Source: Schaalia sp. ORNL0103
Lineage (GTDB): Bacteria; Actinomycetota; Actinomycetes; Actinomycetales; Actinomycetaceae
Direction of reading: 5' to 3'
Length of the DNA stretch: 64,000 nt
Assembly (NCBI RefSeq): GCF_019429565.1
Contig: NZ_JAHXSA010000001.1
Coordinates: forward strand, 372,001 to 436,000
This document shows positions 2,079 to 10,745 of the stretch, piece by piece. The first letter of the stretch is position 1. Every line of letters begins with the position of its first letter. The notes beneath the pieces are model-generated. The model had not been told where the DNA came from and searched no databases. It saw nothing but the letters and a program-made list of their open reading frames with translations. The translations under genes and the position numbers were made by a program.

Positions 2079-2135
2079 TTCGGATTATGATAGCCGACAA
2101 CTATTAGCCCGGTTGTGCGTTCGAAGGAGAATGCC

Positions 2136-3425
2136 GTGGACTCGCTTTTCCTGTGGGAGCTTGGGACTCCCAAGGTCTATCTCATCTGGCTGCTGGTACT
2201 CGCCGCCCAGATCGTCGTCGCGGAGATTAACCGCCGGTGGAACTGGACGATCTTCGCCGTGTGGACCGTGGGCGGCATCGCCCTGATGCCCTACGCGTGG
2301 ATTCACGGGACGCCGATGGTGGGCTGGTTCCCCTTCGGCAAGTACGCGATCATGATCCTGACCGCCACCATGACGGGCACGGTGCTGGTGTACGCGAAAC
2401 GCAACCCGGTCAAGGCGCACAAGTACGCGATCTGGCTGGGCGTGGCCCTGTGGATCGGCCTGGCTGTCAACATCATGGAGGCCAACATCCGCGACCTGAC
2501 GATCTACTTCAACGCGGATTCGTACTACGCGTGCGGCGCCGACTGGCAGTGCCTGAAGGGCGTCAACGACGCGCACACGATCGACATGATCGCCGGCCTG
2601 CCCGAGGCCAGGGGAGTCACCGCCGAGCTGCACTCCCAGCAGTGGTACCAGGAGGTCGCCGCCAACCTGTCCGCCCGCCACGTCGGCATCGACCCGGAGA
2701 CGGGCTTCCGCACGATCGGCGGCTACTGGAACCTCCTGTCCGCTGCGGCCGGCCTGCTCAACATCATCACGATCACGGGCCTGGGCAAGATCATCGTGAC
2801 CTCGCCCGGCAAGCGCTCCGTGCGAGGCCTCATCTGGGTGGACATGGTGTGGCCGTGGGTGATCGCCTACGACCTGTGGAACCACGCGTTCTTGTACAAC
2901 TCGCTGGCCGACTACACGTGGTACTGCACGCTCGCCCTGCTACTCGCCTGCACGATCCCCGCGTTCACGTGGGCGAAGGGCCAGTGGATCTGGTTCCGCT
3001 GCTTCACCCTGGTCTTCTGGATCTCCATGAACACCCTCCTGCCCGAGGTCTTGGTCCCTCCCTCGGACATCTTCAACTTCGCGACCATGGACCCACGCGC
3101 GAACATCGCGTGCGCGGCCCTGGCGCTCGCGGCCAACGTCGCGCTCTTCGCCTACTGGCTGTACAAGATCGTGGTGTACAAGAGGAATCCGATCACGGGC
3201 GTCCTGTACTGCGAGCTGGCCGAGTTCCGCACCATCGTGCGCGAGCATTGCGACGACAGGGACAAGTACTTCCTCGTCGACCGCATCCCGCAGACTCCCG
3301 CCGAGCTGGGCTTCGAGCCCGACTCACCCACCCCGCCATCTGATGGGTATCGAGCCTGGATGCCGTGGTGGAAGGGAGAGGATAGGCGGCACCCGTCGAA
3401 GAGGGGTGCTGACTCGCGCTCGTAG
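2136..3425 (+). CDS. DUF5692-like polytopic membrane protein
   Basis: 429 residues from a GTG at 2136; GGAG at 2126-2129 sits six bases ahead, so I prefer it to the GTG at 2115. Around ten hydrophobic segments run through the first 360 residues, and the C-terminal 70 residues are polar and probably cytoplasmic (CELAEFRTIVREHCDDRDKY). It is a paralogue of the protein encoded at 1-931 (shared AYDLWN.A..YN.LADYTWY region and KRNP-I/L-T motif before the tail). It diverges from the SRPBCC gene, so the three genes may form one unit of two related membrane proteins plus one exported ligand-binding protein. Function is unknown; an inverted-repeat terminator follows. Confidence 0.8.
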   Translation: MDSLFLWELGTPKVYLIWLLVLAAQIVVAEINRRWNWTIFAVWTVGGIALMPYAWIHGTPMVGWFPFGKYAIMILTATMTGTVLVYAKRNPVKAHKYAIWLGVALWIGLAVNIMEANIRDLTIYFNADSYYACGADWQCLKGVNDAHTIDMIAGLPEARGVTAELHSQQWYQEVAANLSARHVGIDPETGFRTIGGYWNLLSAAAGLLNIITITGLGKIIVTSPGKRSVRGLIWVDMVWPWVIAYDLWNHAFLYNSLADYTWYCTLALLLACTIPAFTWAKGQWIWFRCFTLVFWISMNTLLPEVLVPPSDIFNFATMDPRANIACAALALAANVALFAYWLYKIVVYKRNPITGVLYCELAEFRTIVREHCDDRDKYFLVDRIPQTPAELGFEPDSPTPPSDGYRAWMPWWKGEDRRHPSKRGADSRS

Positions 3426-3580: not shown

Positions 3581-4187
3581 CTACTGCTTAAACGACTCAT
3601 CGACGACATGCTCGAACAGACGTACCGTTTCTCGCAAGGGTGGGTACATCGAATCAATGTGCACTCCCTCATCGCGAAGAATTTCTCTGAGCTTCCGTTT
3701 GAAATGCTTTGGTACTCTAATGGAGTATCCGGCTGTTTTAACTAGGCGATCCGGGCTGTTCGTTAGTTCGTTAATGAATGTTGCATTAGTGCTAAAATCG
3801 ATAGGTAATGAGGTTATTATTCGTAATTCGTCAGCATCAAGAGGTGAACTAAATGATCTTTCGTGTTTTGTGAATATTGTTTCTAAGTTTAGTGATGTTT
3901 TGTTAGCCGGGCACGCACATCGATTCTTTTTGCAATGAGAACATTTGTTTGTTCGTAGTTTTATCTTTCTTAATTCTGATGGGATTCCACCGGTTATAAA
4001 ATAGCCTTTTTGGGCGATCATTCTAGGGTCGGAAAATGGTAAAAGAATTGGCCATGTGACAGTACTCCAGAGGAGGGTAAATACTGGATCCTCTATCGGT
4101 TTGTTAAGGTCATAGAGCTTATCTTTTAATCCTTGCCATATGAGATGCTCGACCCGCTTTGTTTCGTTCTTTTCCTTAGGGAAAAGT
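3581..4187 (-). pseudogene. FRG gene remnant, C-terminal third
   Basis: Encodes the last 200 or so residues of the split gene, ending RLFEHVVDESFKQ and a stop at 3581. An open frame continues rightward into the ISL3 element and could start at an ATG at 4291 inside the IS, giving a 236-codon chimeric ORF. The first 35 or so residues of that ORF would be IS antisense sequence. The real part has an RTNKCSHCKKNRCACP cluster of four cysteines. Function alone is doubtful. Confidence 0.8.
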
Positions 4188-5623
4188 GGCTCTTCATAAT
4201 TGAGGGTGTGGGGGTGGTATGCGGGGTTGGGCGTGTCGTGGCCGGGTAGAGGTCGAGGTCTTCCGATGATGGGGGTTGCGACACCGTCCATCTGAAAGAC
4301 CTCGACATGTCCAATGCTACCTTTGATCGCCCTGATCTGAGCGCCTTCACGGGCCTGGATGACCTAGGACTGGAAGTGATGGGTCAACGTGTAGGAGACG
4401 ATCGGACCGTCTTGGCCTGCAAGGTAGTGGGTGAGGATCGGTGGTGCCGACAGTGTGGGGGTGAGGGCGTCGTACGTGACACGGTGGTCAGGCGCTTGGC
4501 TCACGTACCCTACGGGTGGCACCCCACCATGTTGCACGTGAGCGTGCGCCGCTACCGCTGCCCAGAGTGTGCTCACGTGTGGCGTCAAAACATGAGTGCA
4601 GCGGCCGACCCGCGTGCGAAGCTCTCGCGTGCGGCGGTGCGCTGGGCGCTGGTGGGCCTGGTGGTCCATCATCTGACGGTGGCGCGCGTCGCCGACGTAT
4701 TGGCCGTGTCGTGGAACACTGCCAATACCGCGATCTTAGGTGAAGGCCAGCGCATGCTCATCGATGATCCTGATCGTTTCGAGGGGGTGCGTGTCATTGG
4801 CGTGGATGAACACGTGTGGCGACACACCCCATACGGGGACAAATACGTCACCGTCATCTTGGACTTGACTCCTATACGTGACCGTCGTGGTCCCTCCCGG
4901 CTCCTGGATATGATTCCGGGCCGATCCAAGCGGGTTTTCAAAACCTGGCTGGCCTCCCAGCCCGACACCTGGCGCGAGCGCATTGAGATCGTCGCGATGG
5001 ATGGATTCACCGGCTTTAAGAGCGCCGCCGCCGAAGAGCTCCCAGACGCGAGGGCGGTCATGGATCCTTTCCACGTTGTGCGCCTGGCCGGTGATGCTCT
5101 CGATGAGTGCCGCAGGCGCATTCAGCAAGAACTTCACCATCGGCGCGGGCGGGCCACGGATCCCCTGTACAAGGCTCGCAGGATGTTACACACCAGATCT
5201 TGCCTGCTCACCCCACGCCAGCAACACCAGCTAGCCGATCTGTTCGCCAGCGATTGCCACGTCGCACTCGAAGTCACCTGGAGCGTCTACCAGAACATCA
5301 TCGACAGCTACCGCGATCCCCACAAAATCCGCGGCAAGGCCCTAATGCAAGCCGAAATCAACACACTGACCTCCACGCGCGTACCCAGGGGCCTGACCGA
5401 GCTCATCACGCTGGGCAGAACGCTCAAACGCAGAGCCGGAGACATCTTGGCTTACTTCGATCATCCCCACACCAGCAACGGTCCTACCGAAGCCATCAAC
5501 GGCCGCCTCGAACACCTACGCGGATCCGCACTCGGATTCCGAAACCTCAACCACTACATCACCCGAGCACTCCTCGAAACCGGAGGATTCAGACCCCAAC
5601 TACACCCTCAATTATGAAGAGCC
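4188..5623 (+). mobile_element. ISL3-family insertion sequence, copy 1 (1436 bp)
   Basis: Ends are perfect 22-bp inverted repeats starting GGCTCTTCATAATTGAGG. The element is flanked by an 8-bp direct repeat GGAAAAGT (4180-4187 and 5624-5631), the target duplication length usual for ISL3. It carries one intact transposase gene on the plus strand. The target is the minus-strand FRG gene. Intact ends, perfect duplication and intact transposase suggest a recent, possibly still mobile copy. Confidence 0.95.
4307..5617 (+). CDS. ISL3-family transposase
   Basis: 436 residues, full length for the family. An N-terminal zinc-binding region (CRQCGGEG ... YRCPECAHVW, residues about 47-90) is followed by a helix-turn-helix segment (LTVARVADVLAVSWNTAN). 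The DDE catalytic core includes GVDEHVWR, VAMDGFTGF and VMDPFHVVRLAGDALDE, and ends with the late SNGPTEAINGRLEHLRG acidic motif. The stop lies a few bases before the right inverted repeat, as usual for compact IS elements. It moves the surrounding element and has no host role. Confidence 0.95.
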   Translation: MSNATFDRPDLSAFTGLDDLGLEVMGQRVGDDRTVLACKVVGEDRWCRQCGGEGVVRDTVVRRLAHVPYGWHPTMLHVSVRRYRCPECAHVWRQNMSAAADPRAKLSRAAVRWALVGLVVHHLTVARVADVLAVSWNTANTAILGEGQRMLIDDPDRFEGVRVIGVDEHVWRHTPYGDKYVTVILDLTPIRDRRGPSRLLDMIPGRSKRVFKTWLASQPDTWRERIEIVAMDGFTGFKSAAAEELPDARAVMDPFHVVRLAGDALDECRRRIQQELHHRRGRATDPLYKARRMLHTRSCLLTPRQQHQLADLFASDCHVALEVTWSVYQNIIDSYRDPHKIRGKALMQAEINTLTSTRVPRGLTELITLGRTLKRRAGDILAYFDHPHTSNGPTEAINGRLEHLRGSALGFRNLNHYITRALLETGGFRPQLHPQL

Positions 5624-5816
5624 GGAAAAGTTTCCAATTGAATATATTAGTTTTGATAAGAAAAATTCTGCCGTCTACGTCGTTATCGCTCTCGCATGCG
5701 AAATAGAGAGCAATCTTCCAGTCGGAGGTGACGTCGATGAGGCGTGTTGGAGAACCGTGATGTTGGAGCAATGTGAGCGTTTCGAGTGCTGTGAGTCCTC
5801 GTCCGATTCCTATTTC
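5624..5816 (-). pseudogene. FRG gene remnant, middle piece
   Basis: Roughly 62 codons left between the two ISL3 insertions. It holds the most recognisable part of the FRG domain (LLQHHGSPTRLIDVTSDWK, then ALYFACES). It cannot be expressed alone in a useful form, because it lacks the start and both neighbouring parts of the fold. Confidence 0.85.
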
Positions 5817-7265
5817 GGCTCTTCCGAGTTGAGTGTGGGTGACCGGGTCTTGGTCGGGGGTTGCGGGTAGAGGTCGAGGTCCTTGATGATGAGCGGACTT
5901 CTACCCCCGCTGTCGTCAAGGACCTCGACAATGTCTCACCCTACCTGCTGCTGCTCTGCGTCGCTTGATCGTTGTGATCGGTGTGATCTGCTCGTCGGTT
6001 TGGAGGGCTTCCATCTGGTTGCTGTCGCTCGACGTGAGTGTGGTCTGGTGCTCGACATAGAGTCCTGTGATCGCTGTGCTGGATGCCCTGGGTGTGGGGT
6101 GATCGCTCAAGGCCACGGGCGCGTGGTGGTGGAGGTGATCGACGCGCCCTGGGCCGGGGTCCCGGTGCGGATCCGGTGGTTTAAGCGGCGCTGGATATGC
6201 CGCGAAACCACCTGCCAGACGGTGACATTCCTGGAGCATGACGAGCGGGTGTGTGCACACCGGGCGCGTCTGGGCGCCCGGGCGATCCGCTGGGCGATCC
6301 GACAGTTGCGCTTCGAGGGAGCCAGCATTGCAGGATTGGCTCGCCAGTTAGGAACCACGTGGAATACCGTGTGGTCCCATATCAAGCCGTGTCTGCAAGC
6401 CGCATCTGATGACCCTGCCCGTTTCGCAGGGGTGCAGGTATTGGGAGTTGACGAGCACGTGTGGCACCACCAGGACCGACGCCGACGGGGCCCCCGTGAG
6501 CTCACTGGCATCGTGGACCTGACGCGCGGGGAGGATCATCCCACGGCCCGCTTGTTGGATCTGGTCCCGGGAAGGTCTGGCACCGTGTACAAGAACTGGC
6601 TAGAAGAGCGCGGCGAACAGTTTCGCTCCGGTATCCAGATCGCAACACTGGATCCCTTCCAGGGATATAAGAACGCCATTGATGACCAGCTCCAAGACGC
6701 AACCAGCGTGCTGGACGCCTTTCATATCGTCAAGCTCGCTGGCGACGCCCTTGATGAGGTGCGTCGTCGCGTCCAGCAAGACACGACCGGTCACCGCGGA
6801 CGCAAGGGCGATCCCCTCTATCAGATCCGCAATCTTTTGCGCGCCTCGCGCCATAGGCTCACCCCACGTCAACAAGAACGCCTCCGTGAGGCCTTCACGG
6901 CAGATGAGGCGCATATCAGTGTCGAAGTCGCCTACCACTGTGCCCAGCACGTGCGAGATGTCTTCCACCAAGCCACACCCGCCCAAGGCCGACGCCTGGC
7001 CGCTCATCTCATCGAGCGCCTACCAACGTGTCCCATCCCCGAAATCGCTCGCCTGGGCCGGACCCTACGCAAGTGGAAGGACGCCTTCTTGGCCTACTTC
7101 GACACCGGCGGAGCCAGCAACGGCCCCACCGAAGCCATCAACGGAATCATCGAGCTGGGCAGACGCACCGCCAGAGGCTACCGCAACCCCACCAACTACA
7201 GACTCCGAATGCTCCTCATCGCAGGAGGCCTAGACGCCTCCGCCCACACTCAACTCTGAAGAGCC
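5817..7265 (+). mobile_element. ISL3-family insertion sequence, copy 2 (1449 bp, different from copy 1)
   Basis: Inverted repeats start GGCTCTTC[C/A]GAGTTGAGTG and match over about 25 bp with two differences. The target duplication is CCTATTTC at 5809-5816 and 7266-7273, 8 bp and perfect. The transposase differs from that of copy 1, so this is a second independent insertion by another ISL3 member, not a duplication of the first. Both elements share the GGCTCTTC tips and the orientation opposite to the target gene. Confidence 0.95.
5931..7259 (+). CDS. ISL3-family transposase
   Basis: 442 residues from the ATG at 5931; the frame is open upstream to 5883, but the family-like N-terminus begins here. 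The N-terminal cysteine-rich zinc region (CDRC ... CDRCAGCPGCG ... CRETTCQT) is followed by a helix-turn-helix (ASIAGLARQLGTTWNTVW). The DDE core has GVDEHVWHHQ, ATLDPFQGY, VLDAFHIVKLAGDALDEVRRR and ASNGPTEAINGIIELGRR. It is clearly related to, but distinct from, the transposase of copy 1. No frameshift or stop is seen, so the element looks intact. Confidence 0.95.
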   Translation: MSHPTCCCSASLDRCDRCDLLVGLEGFHLVAVARRECGLVLDIESCDRCAGCPGCGVIAQGHGRVVVEVIDAPWAGVPVRIRWFKRRWICRETTCQTVTFLEHDERVCAHRARLGARAIRWAIRQLRFEGASIAGLARQLGTTWNTVWSHIKPCLQAASDDPARFAGVQVLGVDEHVWHHQDRRRRGPRELTGIVDLTRGEDHPTARLLDLVPGRSGTVYKNWLEERGEQFRSGIQIATLDPFQGYKNAIDDQLQDATSVLDAFHIVKLAGDALDEVRRRVQQDTTGHRGRKGDPLYQIRNLLRASRHRLTPRQQERLREAFTADEAHISVEVAYHCAQHVRDVFHQATPAQGRRLAAHLIERLPTCPIPEIARLGRTLRKWKDAFLAYFDTGGASNGPTEAINGIIELGRRTARGYRNPTNYRLRMLLIAGGLDASAHTQL

Positions 7266-7768
7266 CCTATTTCCCTTGCCGTATTGAGTAAGTGTATTTC
7301 AGCTTGAACCATGTTATCTTCGTCGATCCATGACTTCTCAATAAAAATGGTATCTTCGTCGATCCATGACTTCTCAATAAAAGGTGAATCTTGTTTAAGG
7401 AGTGGTGGTTTCTGCGCGTTCTGTCCTTGCGAATTGTTGCTGGTTGCATTTAGTAGTCGTCGATAGAGTGTGGATGTGAATGCGAATCTGCTGTTTTTTT
7501 GGCCGCGAAAGAACCAGACGTTGGAGCCGGTGCTTTCTAGTGGCTGTCCAACATTGTCGTGTTGGTATATCGGTAGTGTCCTAATGGTCTTCTCTACTGC
7601 CTCGTACCATGCCTGAGCATTTTCCTCATCTGATTCGCTCGTATCGTCAAAGTTGACGATGAGCTCACGCTCGGTGAAGAACTTTTCGACGAATCTCTCG
7701 TCGCGCATCCTTTTTTCTTCTGCCGTTTCTTGATGTTCTTCATTTTCCTCGTATGCATCAATGTTCAT
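7266..7768 (-). pseudogene. FRG gene remnant, N-terminal part
   Basis: Starts MNIDAYEENEEHQETAEEK with an acidic, polar N-terminus, then the first FRG motif VWFFRGQKNSRFAFTSTLYRRLL. The native sequence ends at the CCTATTTC duplication; the open frame then adds ALQS from the IS and stops at 7250. A truncated product of about 172 residues could be made, but it lacks the rest of the domain. It contains an in-frame 12-residue tandem duplication (see 7315-7382). Confidence 0.85.
7315..7382 (-). repeat. 36-bp-period tandem duplication inside the FRG remnant
   Basis: The 32-bp block at 7315-7346 recurs exactly at 7351-7382, a 36-bp period (12 codons). It gives two copies of IEKSWIDED in the protein. 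It keeps the frame, so it may predate the IS insertions. Confidence 0.9.
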
Positions 7769-8309
7769 GGTTATCCTACGGTTCTGGCTTGTTGGAATGG
7801 TGGATGTGTGGTGAATCGGGCGTCTGTCGGCACTCGTCTGTTGTTCGTGGCATTAGGTGTGTGTTCTGACGTGCGTCGCTGCTGTTGACCCTGATCCCTC
7901 CGGCACCCCAATGTGACTGTCATCTCTGACCGTAACACAGCTGTTTGGATGGGTCATGCGAAACTGTCAAGTTGTCTGGCAAATCAAAAAATACAAGATA
8001 AATAGCGGAGACTCCTTGTTCTGACAATCAAATTAATCACTCGGTATTTTTCGGCTCTTCAAGCTGTCTAATTGATTGGCGGGTCGATTTCGGTCAGTCG
8101 ATGGAGGTTGTGTGGAGAGTGGGTGAGGGGAGAGGGGTGGGTGCCACTCATGTGTCAATCTCTCCATTCCTTCACCAAAAGGTCAAGAATTCTTAAATTG
8201 TGAAACCCGCTATGAGGTTAGTGACAAACCTTGAGACTATGGAGCAATGGCGTGCCCTCCGGAAAGCCCCGGAGACGCGTCCCCATCCGTACAGAAACGA
8301 GGAACAATG
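7769..8309. other. 540-bp intergenic region, AT-richer
   Basis: No supportable gene on either strand. It holds the promoter region of the dead FRG gene (leftward) and of the subtilase (rightward). A small inverted repeat AGGTT-N7-AACCT lies at 8215-8231 ahead of the subtilase start. The AT-rich stretch around 7975-8080 ends near 8100, where normal high-GC sequence resumes; this may mark the edge of the acquired segment. Confidence 0.5.
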
Positions 8310-10745
8310 ATGCATCATCGCTCATGGAAGACCCTCATCGCGGGAGGAGCCGCGCTCGCCGTTGGCGTCACGCTCACCGCGTTCGGCGCCCCCGCCCACG
8401 CGGCCGGCGTCCCGGGGATCACCTCCGAGGCTCGCGCCCAGGACGAGGTCATGAACTACGCGGTCAACTTGACCGCCGACGCCTCCCACTACGACTTCAA
8501 CGCGGCCGTCTCCAAGGCCTCGGAAAACGGCGTCGTCCTGGCCCAGTACCCCGAATTCAACACCTTCTTCGTCCAGTCGGTGAAGGCTTCCTTCGCGCCG
8601 ACGCTCGGTAAGAGCCTCGTCGACGCCGGCATCTCTTACCAGTCGATTGGCCCCACCCGCTACAAGACGGTCACCGGCTCCGAGGTGCGCACCGATCAGC
8701 CGCAGGCCACTGCGGCCGAGGCCAACGCCGTCGCTGACGCCGCCGGCACCCGCTCGACCGGCCTGTCCGCCGACTCTCAGCTCAACGACTTCACCCCCGA
8801 CGAGGGCGACGCCAACGCCTGGGGCCTGGCCGCCATCAGTGCGCTCGACGCCCAGCAGGTCGACGTCCCCCTCGAGAAGGTCACCGTCGGCGTCATGGAC
8901 ACCGGCATCGACCCCGACCACAAGGACCTCAAGGAGCACCTCGACGCCTCGCGTTCCGTGGGCTGCCAGATCAACGGCATCCCCAGGCAGGCCCCTGCGG
9001 ACTGGAAGGATGACCACTACCACGGCACGCACGTCGCCGGTACCATCGCCGCCGCGCACAACGCCTACGGTGTGGACGGCGTCGCCCCCAGCGCCACGAT
9101 CGTCGCGATCAAGACCTCGAACGAGGCCGGCTCCTTCTACCCCGAGTACGTGGCCTGCGCCTTCGATTGGGCTGCCGAGCACGACATCGACGTGACGAAC
9201 TCCAGCTACTACATGGACCCCTACGCCTTCTGGATGCCCACCGAGGGCTCCCAGGCTGCGGGCCTCGAGGCTGCCTCGCGCGCGATCCGCTACGCGAAGA
9301 ACCACGGCGTCGTCAACATCGCCGCCGAGGGTAACGACAACGACGACCACGACAACCCGACGATCGATAAGGCATCGCCCAACGACGTCGAGGGCGCCGC
9401 GGTCGAGCGCAACGTGGCCGGCGGCATCGACGTGCCCGCCATGGTCAACGACTCGGTCGTCTCCGTGGCCGCCGTCGCCCTGCCCACCGGCACCGACCCG
9501 GCCATCGCGAAGCTCGAGCGTTCCAAGTTCTCCAACTACGGCAAGAACTCCGTGGACGTGGCCGCCCCCGGCTCGCGCATCTGGTCGACCCTGCCGACCT
9601 GGAAGAAGGATCCGCCCTTCGGTTACTTGTCCGGCACCTCGATGGCCTCCCCGCACGCTGCGGGCGTGGCCGCGCTGATCAAGCAGATCCACCCGGACTA
9701 CACGCCTGACCAGACCATCGCCCTGCTCAAGAAGCAGGCGGGCTACACCTACGACCGCCTCGCTGCGCCCGAGGACGGTAAGGAATACCGCGGCGCCGGC
9801 CTCGTCAACGCCCTGGCCGCCGTCCTCAAGGACCAGCCGCAGCCCGTCCTCGGCAGCCTCGAGTACTCCCACGACGGCGCCACCGACTGGCGTCCGCTCG
9901 CCGACGCGTCTGTCTCAGGCACCGTCTACGTGCGCACCACGGTCTCCGGCCCCGTCACCAAGGCCTCCCTGAAGGTCGGCGACAAGGAAGCCGTGACCGG
10001 CACCGGCACGGGCGCCTTCGAGGGTAACGAGGTCACGCTTGTGGCTGGCCCCTACAACGCGACCGACCTGATCGGCGACGCCCCCCACGTGGAGGTCACG
10101 GTTACCGCCGAGGGCCGCAACAAGGATGCCCGCGCCGATGACGACGTCAAGGACTCGATCCACTTCCACGTGGATGAATCCCTGCGCGCCGGCGGCGCCT
10201 GGACCAACAGCACCGATGGCTGGAAGTACTGCTACAACGACGGCTACTGCGCCCGCAGCAAGTACGTCACCATCGATGGCTCCACCTACTACTTCAACGG
10301 TGACGCCGTGATGGCGACCGGCTGGGTCACCTTCGACGCGGTATGGCACTGGATGACCCCGTCCGGCCGCATGGCGACGGGCTGGACCAAGGTCGACGGC
10401 TCCTGGTACTACCTCGATCCCGCCACCGGCGCCATGGCCACCGGCTGGGCCAACGTCGACGGCTCCTGGTACTACCTGAACGCCTCGGGCGCGATGGCCA
10501 CCGGCTGGGCCAACGTCGACGGCTCCTGGTACTACCTGAACGCCTCGGGCGCGATGGCCACCGGCTGGACCGCAGTGAACGGCAAGTGGTACTACCTGAC
10601 CGGCAACGGCGCGATGGCGATTGGCTGGGTCAACGACGGCGGCACCTGGTACTACCTCGATGCCTCCGGCAAGATGGTGACCGGTTGGGTCTCCATCGAC
10701 GGCACGCGCTACCACTTCGCGCCCTCCGGCGCCTGGCTCGGCTGA
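8310..10745 (+). CDS. Secreted S8 subtilisin-like serine protease with C-terminal cell-wall-binding-type repeats
   Basis: 811 residues from the ATG at 8310, seven bases after GAGG; an adjacent ATG at 8307 is the alternative. A Sec signal peptide (KTLIAGGAALAVGVTLTAFG, AHA cleavage region) is followed by an N-terminal prodomain. The catalytic triad is visible: Asp197 (VMDTGIDPDH), His238 (HGTHVAGT) and Ser444 (GTSMASPHAAG). After a linker domain, residues of about 650-811 form around eight 20-residue aromatic repeats of the GW...DGSWYYL...GAMATGW type, like choline-binding or glucan-binding repeats. These probably hold the enzyme on the cell surface; there is no LPXTG anchor. Likely an extracellular protease acting on host or peer proteins; the substrate is unknown. 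Confidence 0.93.
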   Translation: MHHRSWKTLIAGGAALAVGVTLTAFGAPAHAAGVPGITSEARAQDEVMNYAVNLTADASHYDFNAAVSKASENGVVLAQYPEFNTFFVQSVKASFAPTLGKSLVDAGISYQSIGPTRYKTVTGSEVRTDQPQATAAEANAVADAAGTRSTGLSADSQLNDFTPDEGDANAWGLAAISALDAQQVDVPLEKVTVGVMDTGIDPDHKDLKEHLDASRSVGCQINGIPRQAPADWKDDHYHGTHVAGTIAAAHNAYGVDGVAPSATIVAIKTSNEAGSFYPEYVACAFDWAAEHDIDVTNSSYYMDPYAFWMPTEGSQAAGLEAASRAIRYAKNHGVVNIAAEGNDNDDHDNPTIDKASPNDVEGAAVERNVAGGIDVPAMVNDSVVSVAAVALPTGTDPAIAKLERSKFSNYGKNSVDVAAPGSRIWSTLPTWKKDPPFGYLSGTSMASPHAAGVAALIKQIHPDYTPDQTIALLKKQAGYTYDRLAAPEDGKEYRGAGLVNALAAVLKDQPQPVLGSLEYSHDGATDWRPLADASVSGTVYVRTTVSGPVTKASLKVGDKEAVTGTGTGAFEGNEVTLVAGPYNATDLIGDAPHVEVTVTAEGRNKDARADDDVKDSIHFHVDESLRAGGAWTNSTDGWKYCYNDGYCARSKYVTIDGSTYYFNGDAVMATGWVTFDAVWHWMTPSGRMATGWTKVDGSWYYLDPATGAMATGWANVDGSWYYLNASGAMATGWANVDGSWYYLNASGAMATGWTAVNGKWYYLTGNGAMAIGWVNDGGTWYYLDASGKMVTGWVSIDGTRYHFAPSGAWLG
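10441..10560 (+). repeat. Two identical 60-bp tandem repeats in the subtilase gene
   Basis: 10441-10500 and 10501-10560 are identical base for base, each encoding one 20-residue wall-binding-type repeat. Flanking repeats have diverged, so this is a recent unit duplication and a likely site of copy-number variation between strains. Confidence 0.95.

What the first reader, a model, noticed from the sequence alone, without database searches (positions are those of the whole stretch)
3581..7768. One FRG-domain gene broken by two independent ISL3-family insertions, exactly restorable on paper
Two distinct ISL3 elements (4188-5623, duplication GGAAAAGT; 5817-7265, duplication CCTATTTC) sit in a single minus-strand gene. 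Removing both and one copy of each duplication gives 503+185+599 = 1287 nt with no frame error, a 428-codon ORF. FRG motifs are split among the pieces (FFRGQ in the first, QHHGSPTRLIDVT in the second, a CxxC-type cluster in the third). Two hits in one small AT-rich gene suggest either a preferred target or selection against the gene, as seen with toxic or abortive defence proteins.
Basis: partly seen in the sequence, partly recalled or inferred. Interest (0 to 1): 0.88.

Follow-up and report, generated by a model that had tools for sequence, protein, structure and literature searches.

The report
Candidate phage-defence gene split by transposons
A bacterial gene that probably helps resist phages has been cut into three pieces by two recently inserted jumping genes, at a chromosomal spot where related species keep other defence genes.

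Summary
Two different ISL3 elements, each with a perfect 8-bp duplication, split one minus-strand gene; the pieces are open, collinear and in phase. Searched apart, all three match the PADLOC candidate-defence family PDC-S15; the middle piece passes Pfam's FRG cut-off. A sibling species (G020) has an uninterrupted 446-aa orthologue at the same locus that runs through both break points. No empty site in the same species was seen.

The double hit does not require a toxic gene. The nine identical copies of these elements in this genome share an AT-cored, G/C-flanked target, and the gene is 3.2-fold richer in it than the rest of the window. After the first hit, a second would be free.

More informative is the place. 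The slot between a DUF5692 gene and an S8 protease gene holds different cargo in 7 of the 10 genomes examined for both flanks: FRG, AriA-like ATPase plus DUF4435-like, STAND-like NTPase, or type III CRISPR. ISL3 material lies in 3 of these 7 slots. Verdict: a recently inactivated single-gene defence candidate, probably an ART-fold NAD+-using effector, in a defence hotspot. New member of a known kind.

The parts
7266..7768 (-). First (N-terminal) piece of the FRG gene, residues 1-167; carries FFRGQ (motif 1). Ends in one copy of the element-B duplication.
   Evidence: PADLOC PDC-S15 E 5e-4; Pfam FRG only 15 bits, below the 25-bit cut-off; aligns to residues 1-185 of the intact G020 protein
5817..7265 (+). 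ISL3-family element B, 1449 bp, transposase 5883-7259
   Evidence: inverted ends; DDE_Tnp_ISL3 2.3e-56; 4 identical copies in the genome
5809..5816 (.). Target duplication CCTATTTC of element B, left copy (right copy 7266-7273)
5624..5816 (-). Middle piece of the FRG gene; carries QHHGSPTRLIDVT (motif 2)
   Evidence: Pfam FRG 2.3e-11, 44.9 bits; PADLOC PDC-S15 3.4e-16; 83% identical to G020 residues 184-247
4188..5623 (+). ISL3-family element A, 1436 bp, transposase 4307-5617
   Evidence: inverted ends; DDE_Tnp_ISL3 1.4e-57; 5 identical copies in the genome
4180..4187 (.). Target duplication GGAAAAGT of element A, left copy (right copy 5624-5631)
3581..4187 (-). Third (C-terminal) piece of the FRG gene; carries RMIAQKGYF (motif 3) and a C-x2-C-x4-C-x-C cluster; stop codon at its low end
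   Evidence: PADLOC PDC-S15 6e-5; no Pfam FRG hit, the 94-position model ends before it; 56-57% identical to G020 residues 247-446
2115..3425 (+). DUF5692 gene: one edge of the variable slot
   Evidence: Pfam DUF5692 5.3e-58; DNA match in 24 of 35 genus genomes, several of these short or weak
8247..10745 (+). S8 (subtilase) protease with choline-binding repeats: other edge of the slot
   Evidence: Pfam Peptidase_S8 1.2e-45; adjacent to the slot in 7 of the 10 genomes checked

Best explanation
The gene is a recently inactivated, single-gene candidate anti-phage system of the FRG family (PADLOC PDC-S15), horizontally acquired in a chromosomal defence hotspot. Shown: two ISL3 elements transposed into it by ordinary insertion with 8-bp target duplication, at sites that fit the elements' common target; they separate the three invariant motifs of the protein (R-G; Q-H...T-R..D; R...Q.G.F) onto three pieces, so no complete protein can be read from this copy. 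Shown: a sibling species keeps the gene uninterrupted at the same locus. Inferred: the intact protein is an ADP-ribosyltransferase-fold enzyme that consumes or transfers from NAD+ when phage infection is sensed, stopping growth of the infected cell; its Cys cluster may be a metal-binding regulatory insert. Inferred: the double hit reflects target preference plus dispensability, with the second hit neutral after the first; selection for losing the gene may or may not have favoured the first.
For: Pieces apart: Pfam FRG on the middle piece, PDC-S15 on all three at collinear profile positions. Intact syntenic orthologue in G020 spanning both joins. Duplications and 5 + 4 identical element copies. 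Target model trained on the other 7 copies: both FRG sites above the 99th percentile, gene 3.2-fold target-rich. Slot holds other defence-type cargo in the other five genomes with this arrangement: AriA-like ATPase + DUF4435-like (G005), STAND-like NTPase (G023), type III CRISPR genes and/or arrays (G024, G018, G006). All 6 FRG loci found in the 35 genus genomes lie in the slot (2), beside restriction-modification genes (2) or 1.4-2.2 kb from a CRISPR array (2). Slot diverges far more than its edges: dS 0.82-2.0 against 0.17-0.42. Frg assigned to the ART superfamily and proposed as NADase by PMC9503650 (passages). A viral FRG model (pLDDT 79.5, pTM 0.80) has ART-fold toxins as its nine top PDB matches, none significant.
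Against: No phage or NAD assay was possible, and the paper searches listed no experimental test of an FRG protein (listings, not full reading). The fold evidence is below significance (best E 0.037; 0 of 112 matches at E <= 0.001). No PDB chain is related by sequence. No empty site from the same species was found; the nearest intact copy is only 52-83% identical by piece. The N piece alone fails Pfam's cut-off. The context counts have no control for how often random genes lie near defence genes. Even with target weighting, two of nine in this gene is unlikely a priori (1.1e-4 for this gene; 0.05 expected same-gene pairs genome-wide, or 0.25 if only 20% of the genome tolerates hits: an assumption).
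Confidence: 0.68

Rival explanations
1. Selection against a costly defence gene: the first insertion was favoured because the FRG protein was harmful (autoimmunity, or conflict with a useful mobile element), as reported for IS insertion into cas and other defence genes.
For: IS inactivation of defence genes is documented (PMC10359306: abstract and section 14 read). In sibling species G018 an element 96.7% identical to A sits in a type III cas7 gene of the same slot and another ISL3 element lies inside its CRISPR array. ISL3 hits in the slot exceed uniform expectation (G000 2 of 11 elements, P 4e-5; G018 2 of 8, P 2.4e-3), and still do after target weighting (3.6e-4; 5.9e-3 with weight 1.6, the measured weight being 1.84).
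Against: These tests are post hoc, and dispensable AT-rich cargo would give the same excess. The second hit is uninformative. The intact allele pair shows purifying constraint.
Confidence: 0.25
2. Reversible switch: precise excision of the elements turns the defence gene on and off in the population.
For: Frame and one duplication copy are preserved on paper.
Against: That is true of any fresh simple insertion into an open frame. Two different elements would both have to leave precisely; no empty copy was seen in G000 (one FRG match).
Confidence: 0.03
3. Assembly artefact: the elements were misplaced when repeats were assembled.
For: Both elements are multi-copy with 100% identity.
Against: Each copy in the window has its own matching 8-bp duplication, as do the 7 other copies, and the gene pieces are collinear with the G020 protein.
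Confidence: 0.02
4. The FRG protein is not a defence effector but an accessory enzyme of another kind that happens to travel in islands.
For: FRG proteins are also on phages and plasmids; no assay is known to me from these searches.
Against: 6 of 6 genus loci in defence-type context; PDC-S15 listing; presence on phages is also usual for defence genes.
Confidence: 0.2

Closest known systems
FRG domain family, Pfam PF08867
   Same: Middle piece 44.9 bits over the 25-bit cut-off; intact orthologue 60.2 bits; same invariant residues as 25 viral FRG proteins
   Different: Broken here; longer than most (446 aa in G020), with a Cys-cluster insert absent from the five other aligned homologues
PDC-S15, PADLOC candidate single-gene defence system
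   Same: All three pieces and the intact orthologue match several PDC-S15 models
   Different: Candidate family only; not tested here
Frg clade of the ART superfamily (PMC9503650)
   Same: Three conserved motifs; nine top structural matches of a viral FRG model are ART-fold toxins
   Different: Matches not significant; activity unknown
ISL3 family insertion sequences
   Same: DDE_Tnp_ISL3 transposase, inverted ends, 8-bp duplications
   Different: Nothing unusual seen; target core SSWWWWSS-like measured here on nine sites
IS inactivation of defence systems (PMC10359306)
   Same: IS insertion disables a predicted defence gene
   Different: ISL3 rather than IS1/IS10; an FRG gene; two hits in one gene
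Core defence hotspots (PMC10250203, listing and start of abstract seen)
   Same: Conserved edges, variable defence cargo
   Different: Different organism and edges (DUF5692 and S8 protease); the only held paper with the word DUF5692 is about isoprene reduction

Membership tests
FRG (PF08867) | Match over curated cut-off | tested here: met
   Middle piece 44.9 bits against 25; N piece alone 15 bits, below; intact G020 orthologue 60.2
FRG (PF08867) | Conserved R-G, Q-H..T-R..D motifs | tested here: met
   Present in pieces N and M; invariant in A1 (6 sequences); R, G, Q, H, T, D invariant and R96 nearly so in A5 (25 viral sequences)
PDC-S15 | Match to PADLOC models | tested here: met
   All three pieces and the intact orthologue; PADLOC gives no curated cut-off in this tool
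PDC-S15 | Protection against phage | not testable with these tools
   No bench work
ART superfamily | ART fold | tested here: inconclusive
   Viral FRG model: nine best Foldseek matches are ART-fold toxins (fold membership recalled), E 0.037-0.52, none <= 0.001
ART superfamily | NAD+ use | not testable with these tools
   Proposed in PMC9503650 (passages)
ISL3 | ISL3 DDE transposase | tested here: met
   E 1.4e-57 and 2.3e-56
ISL3 | Inverted ends and 8-bp duplication | tested here: met
   9 of 9 identical copies have an 8-bp duplication; the 2 diverged full-length copies have none
Chromosomal defence hotspot | Conserved edges with varying cargo | tested here: met
   7 of 10 genomes checked have both edges on either side of 2.0-21 kb of cargo; G010, G004, G009 do not
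Chromosomal defence hotspot | Cargo is defence systems | tested here: met
   Type III CRISPR genes and arrays in G024, G018, G006; FRG in G000, G020; AriA-like in G005. Weak: DUF4435 hit 19 bits under a 27-bit cut-off (G005), nSTAND 33.2 under 34 and a 271-aa protein without any hit (G023)

The most novel reading that the evidence does not exclude
The DUF5692/S8-protease slot of this actinobacterial genus is an undescribed defence hotspot in which ISL3 elements repeatedly switch off newly acquired immune genes under selection (FRG in this species, type III cas7 and a CRISPR array in G018), so that defence cargo turns over by acquisition followed by transposon inactivation; the FRG gene is a stand-alone NAD+-consuming abortive effector with a metal-binding regulatory insert.
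Probability: 0.22. Interest if true: 0.62.

Novelty: new member of a known kind. Interest (0 to 1): 0.42.

Why it matters
It turns a curiosity (two transposons in one gene) into a dated loss event in a candidate immune gene, supplies a naturally intact orthologue for testing, and marks a chromosomal slot where sibling species of one genus carry different defence cargo. That slot can be mined for uncharacterised systems, such as the STAND-like plus 271-aa pair in G023. FRG proteins are common on phages and plasmids, yet the paper searches here listed no experimental test of one.

Tried and rejected
Two genome-contig scans, with the C piece and the N piece, and one viral-contig scan with the C piece found no relative, so no second strain and no observed empty site. 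Plasmids gave 4 distant relatives, best 33% identity. Phages gave 11 records with the middle piece. A profile scan of viral contigs gave 99 relatives among 133 candidate stretches, 80 kept. PDB sequence searches gave nothing related. Rejected: a Se_S_carrier hit on the C piece (15.1 bits, cut-off 25); PtuA on the N piece (E 0.008); assembly artefact (see rivals).

For the 7 other element copies I looked at open frames on each flank apart: one (L006) and perhaps a second (L010) seems to interrupt a long frame, the rest show shorter frames or are unclear. I did not identify those genes, so I make no claim about a general bias towards defence genes. The ORF lists used for slots come from a simple length-and-codon-position caller of my own, not an annotation; family searches covered 10 selected slot proteins, 9 slot proteins plus the G020 FRG, and 10 selected proteins, not every ORF.

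Full report
Observation. Read directly, the region 3581-7768 contains two elements, 4188-5623 and 5817-7265, each flanked by a perfect 8-bp direct repeat and bounded by inverted ends that begin GGCTCTTC. Their transposases are ISL3-type and only 38% identical to each other. The genome has 5 identical copies of the first and 4 of the second. The remaining pieces on the minus strand are open in one phase.

Is it one gene? Pieces were searched apart. Pfam FRG: middle piece 2.3e-11, N piece 15 bits (below the 25-bit cut-off), C piece none. PADLOC PDC-S15: N piece to profile positions 7-66 of PDLC04937, middle piece to 83-134 of PDLC04926, C piece to 223-291 of PDLC04936, i.e. collinear. The whole genome has one FRG match. 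A search of 35 genus genomes with the C piece found relatives in 4, the window's genome included. In G020 the relative is an uninterrupted 446-aa ORF next to the same DUF5692 gene and the same protease gene. Aligned singly, the window pieces cover its residues 1-185, 184-247 and 247-446, so the intact relative is homologous through both joins.

Divergence. Against G020 the slot-edge genes have dS 0.17-0.42, while the three FRG pieces have dS 0.83, 0.82 and 2.0 (the last near saturation) with dN/dS 0.27, 0.11 and 0.15. The FRG alleles are therefore much older than the split of the surrounding genes: allele replacement or separate acquisition, under constraint. The window allele also has a 36-bp in-frame tandem duplication (7311-7382) that G020 lacks.

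Why two hits? The nine duplications have 33 of 36 A/T in the central four positions, flanked by G/C; 0 of 100,000 random nine-site sets from the window are as AT-rich. A matrix trained on the seven copies outside the gene ranks the two FRG sites at the 99.6th and 99.3rd percentile, and weights the gene 3.2 times the rest of the window. Two of nine in this particular gene has probability 1.1e-5 if uniform and 1.1e-4 with weighting; expected same-gene pairs anywhere are 0.015, 0.049, or 0.25 if only a fifth of the genome tolerates insertion (an assumption). So the coincidence is uncommon but moderate once one allows for any gene, target preference and dispensability, and after the first hit the second needs no selection.

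The place. DNA of the DUF5692 gene matches 24 of 35 genus genomes, several only briefly or weakly. I located the protease gene and the next gene in 10 genomes: in 7 (G000, G020, G023, G024, G018, G006, G005) DUF5692 and the protease enclose a slot of about 4.8, 2.0, 5.6, 14.7, 21, 19.8 and 3.7 kb; in G010, G004 and G009 they do not. DUF5692 is incomplete in G005 and G006. Cargo: G020 intact FRG; G005 an AAA ATPase whose best PADLOC hit is AriA (partial match) with a 323-aa neighbour weakly DUF4435-like (19 bits, cut-off 27); G023 a 1118-aa protein just below the nSTAND_NTPase5 cut-off and a 271-aa protein with no hit; G024 Cas7/Csm3-type type III genes and CRISPR repeats; G018 Cas10, Cas7_IIId, Csx19 and a repeat array; G006 Cas10, Cas7_IIId, Cas1 and a repeat array. 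The slots are AT-rich and 1.8-3.0 times target-weighted against the window background.

ISL3 in the slots. tblastn with both transposases finds ISL3 material in 3 of the 7: two elements here, two in G018, one fragment in G023. In G018 one element, 96.7% identical to element A, has duplication GGGAATCG; the cas7_IIId frame runs 12 bases into it. The other lies within the span of the repeat array. Counts in the slots exceed uniform expectation (G000 P 4e-5, G018 P 2.4e-3) and, less strongly, weighted expectation (3.6e-4; 5.9e-3 with a weight of 1.6, a little under the 1.84 measured in the same call). These tests were chosen after seeing the data, and relaxed constraint would give the same result.

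FRG elsewhere in the genus. PF08867 is found in 5 of 35 genomes, 6 places. Two are the slot copies. G029's lies between an N6/N4 methylase and a ResIII/RE_endonuc protein; G020's second lies beside a GmrSD_N protein and an Eco29kI-type restriction-modification pair. Those of G002 and G032 lie 1.4 and 2.2 kb from CRISPR repeat arrays. I ran no control for how often random genes have such neighbours.

Mechanism. Three residue groups are invariant in six diverse FRG proteins and, with R96 nearly so, in 25 viral ones: R-G, Q-H...T-R..D, and R...Q. The two elements put each on a different piece. PMC9503650 (passages) assigns Frg to the ART superfamily and suggests NADase activity. An AlphaFold2 model of a viral FRG protein (pLDDT 79.5, pTM 0.80) has as its nine best PDB matches diphtheria-toxin-type proteins and Rhs Tre toxins, which I know as ART-fold enzymes, at E 0.037-0.52; none of 112 matches reaches 0.001. 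This agrees with the published assignment without proving it. Most likely the intact protein is an NAD+-directed growth-arrest effector; the trigger is unknown.

Known or new. IS inactivation of defence genes is known (PMC10359306, abstract and section 14), as are defence hotspots (PMC10250203, listing), FRG and ISL3. The particular slot seems unreported in the library held: 'DUF5692' occurs in one paper, on isoprene reduction, and a search with Schaalia and defence-hotspot terms listed 8 of 210 papers, none showing 'schaalia'.

Noticed in passing
7311-7382: 36-bp in-frame tandem duplication (35 of 36 identical) in the N piece of the FRG gene, absent from the G020 orthologue.
   Followed up: partly
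3581-4187 (Cys cluster near 3900-3960): C-x2-C-x4-C-x-C cluster after motif 3, all four Cys conserved in G020 and absent from the five other aligned FRG proteins: possible metal-binding insert.
   Followed up: partly
L056:2225-6393: In G023 the same slot holds a 1118-aa STAND-like protein and a 271-aa partner with no Pfam or PADLOC hit: candidate uncharacterised defence pair.
   Followed up: partly
L058:4103-5486: In G018 an ISL3 element lies inside the span of a CRISPR repeat array in the slot.
   Followed up: partly
G000:C1:993029-996899 (L004, L008): A second cluster of two full-length element-A relatives about 1 kb apart in the same genome; one is 85% identical and lacks a matching duplication.
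   Followed up: no
L093:5040-10890: In G029 an FRG gene sits between the methylase and restriction genes of what looks like a type III restriction-modification operon.
   Followed up: partly
L075:320-1684: P2-like phages carry an FRG gene two to three genes from the replication gene; related 444-463-aa proteins recur in several viral contigs.
   Followed up: no
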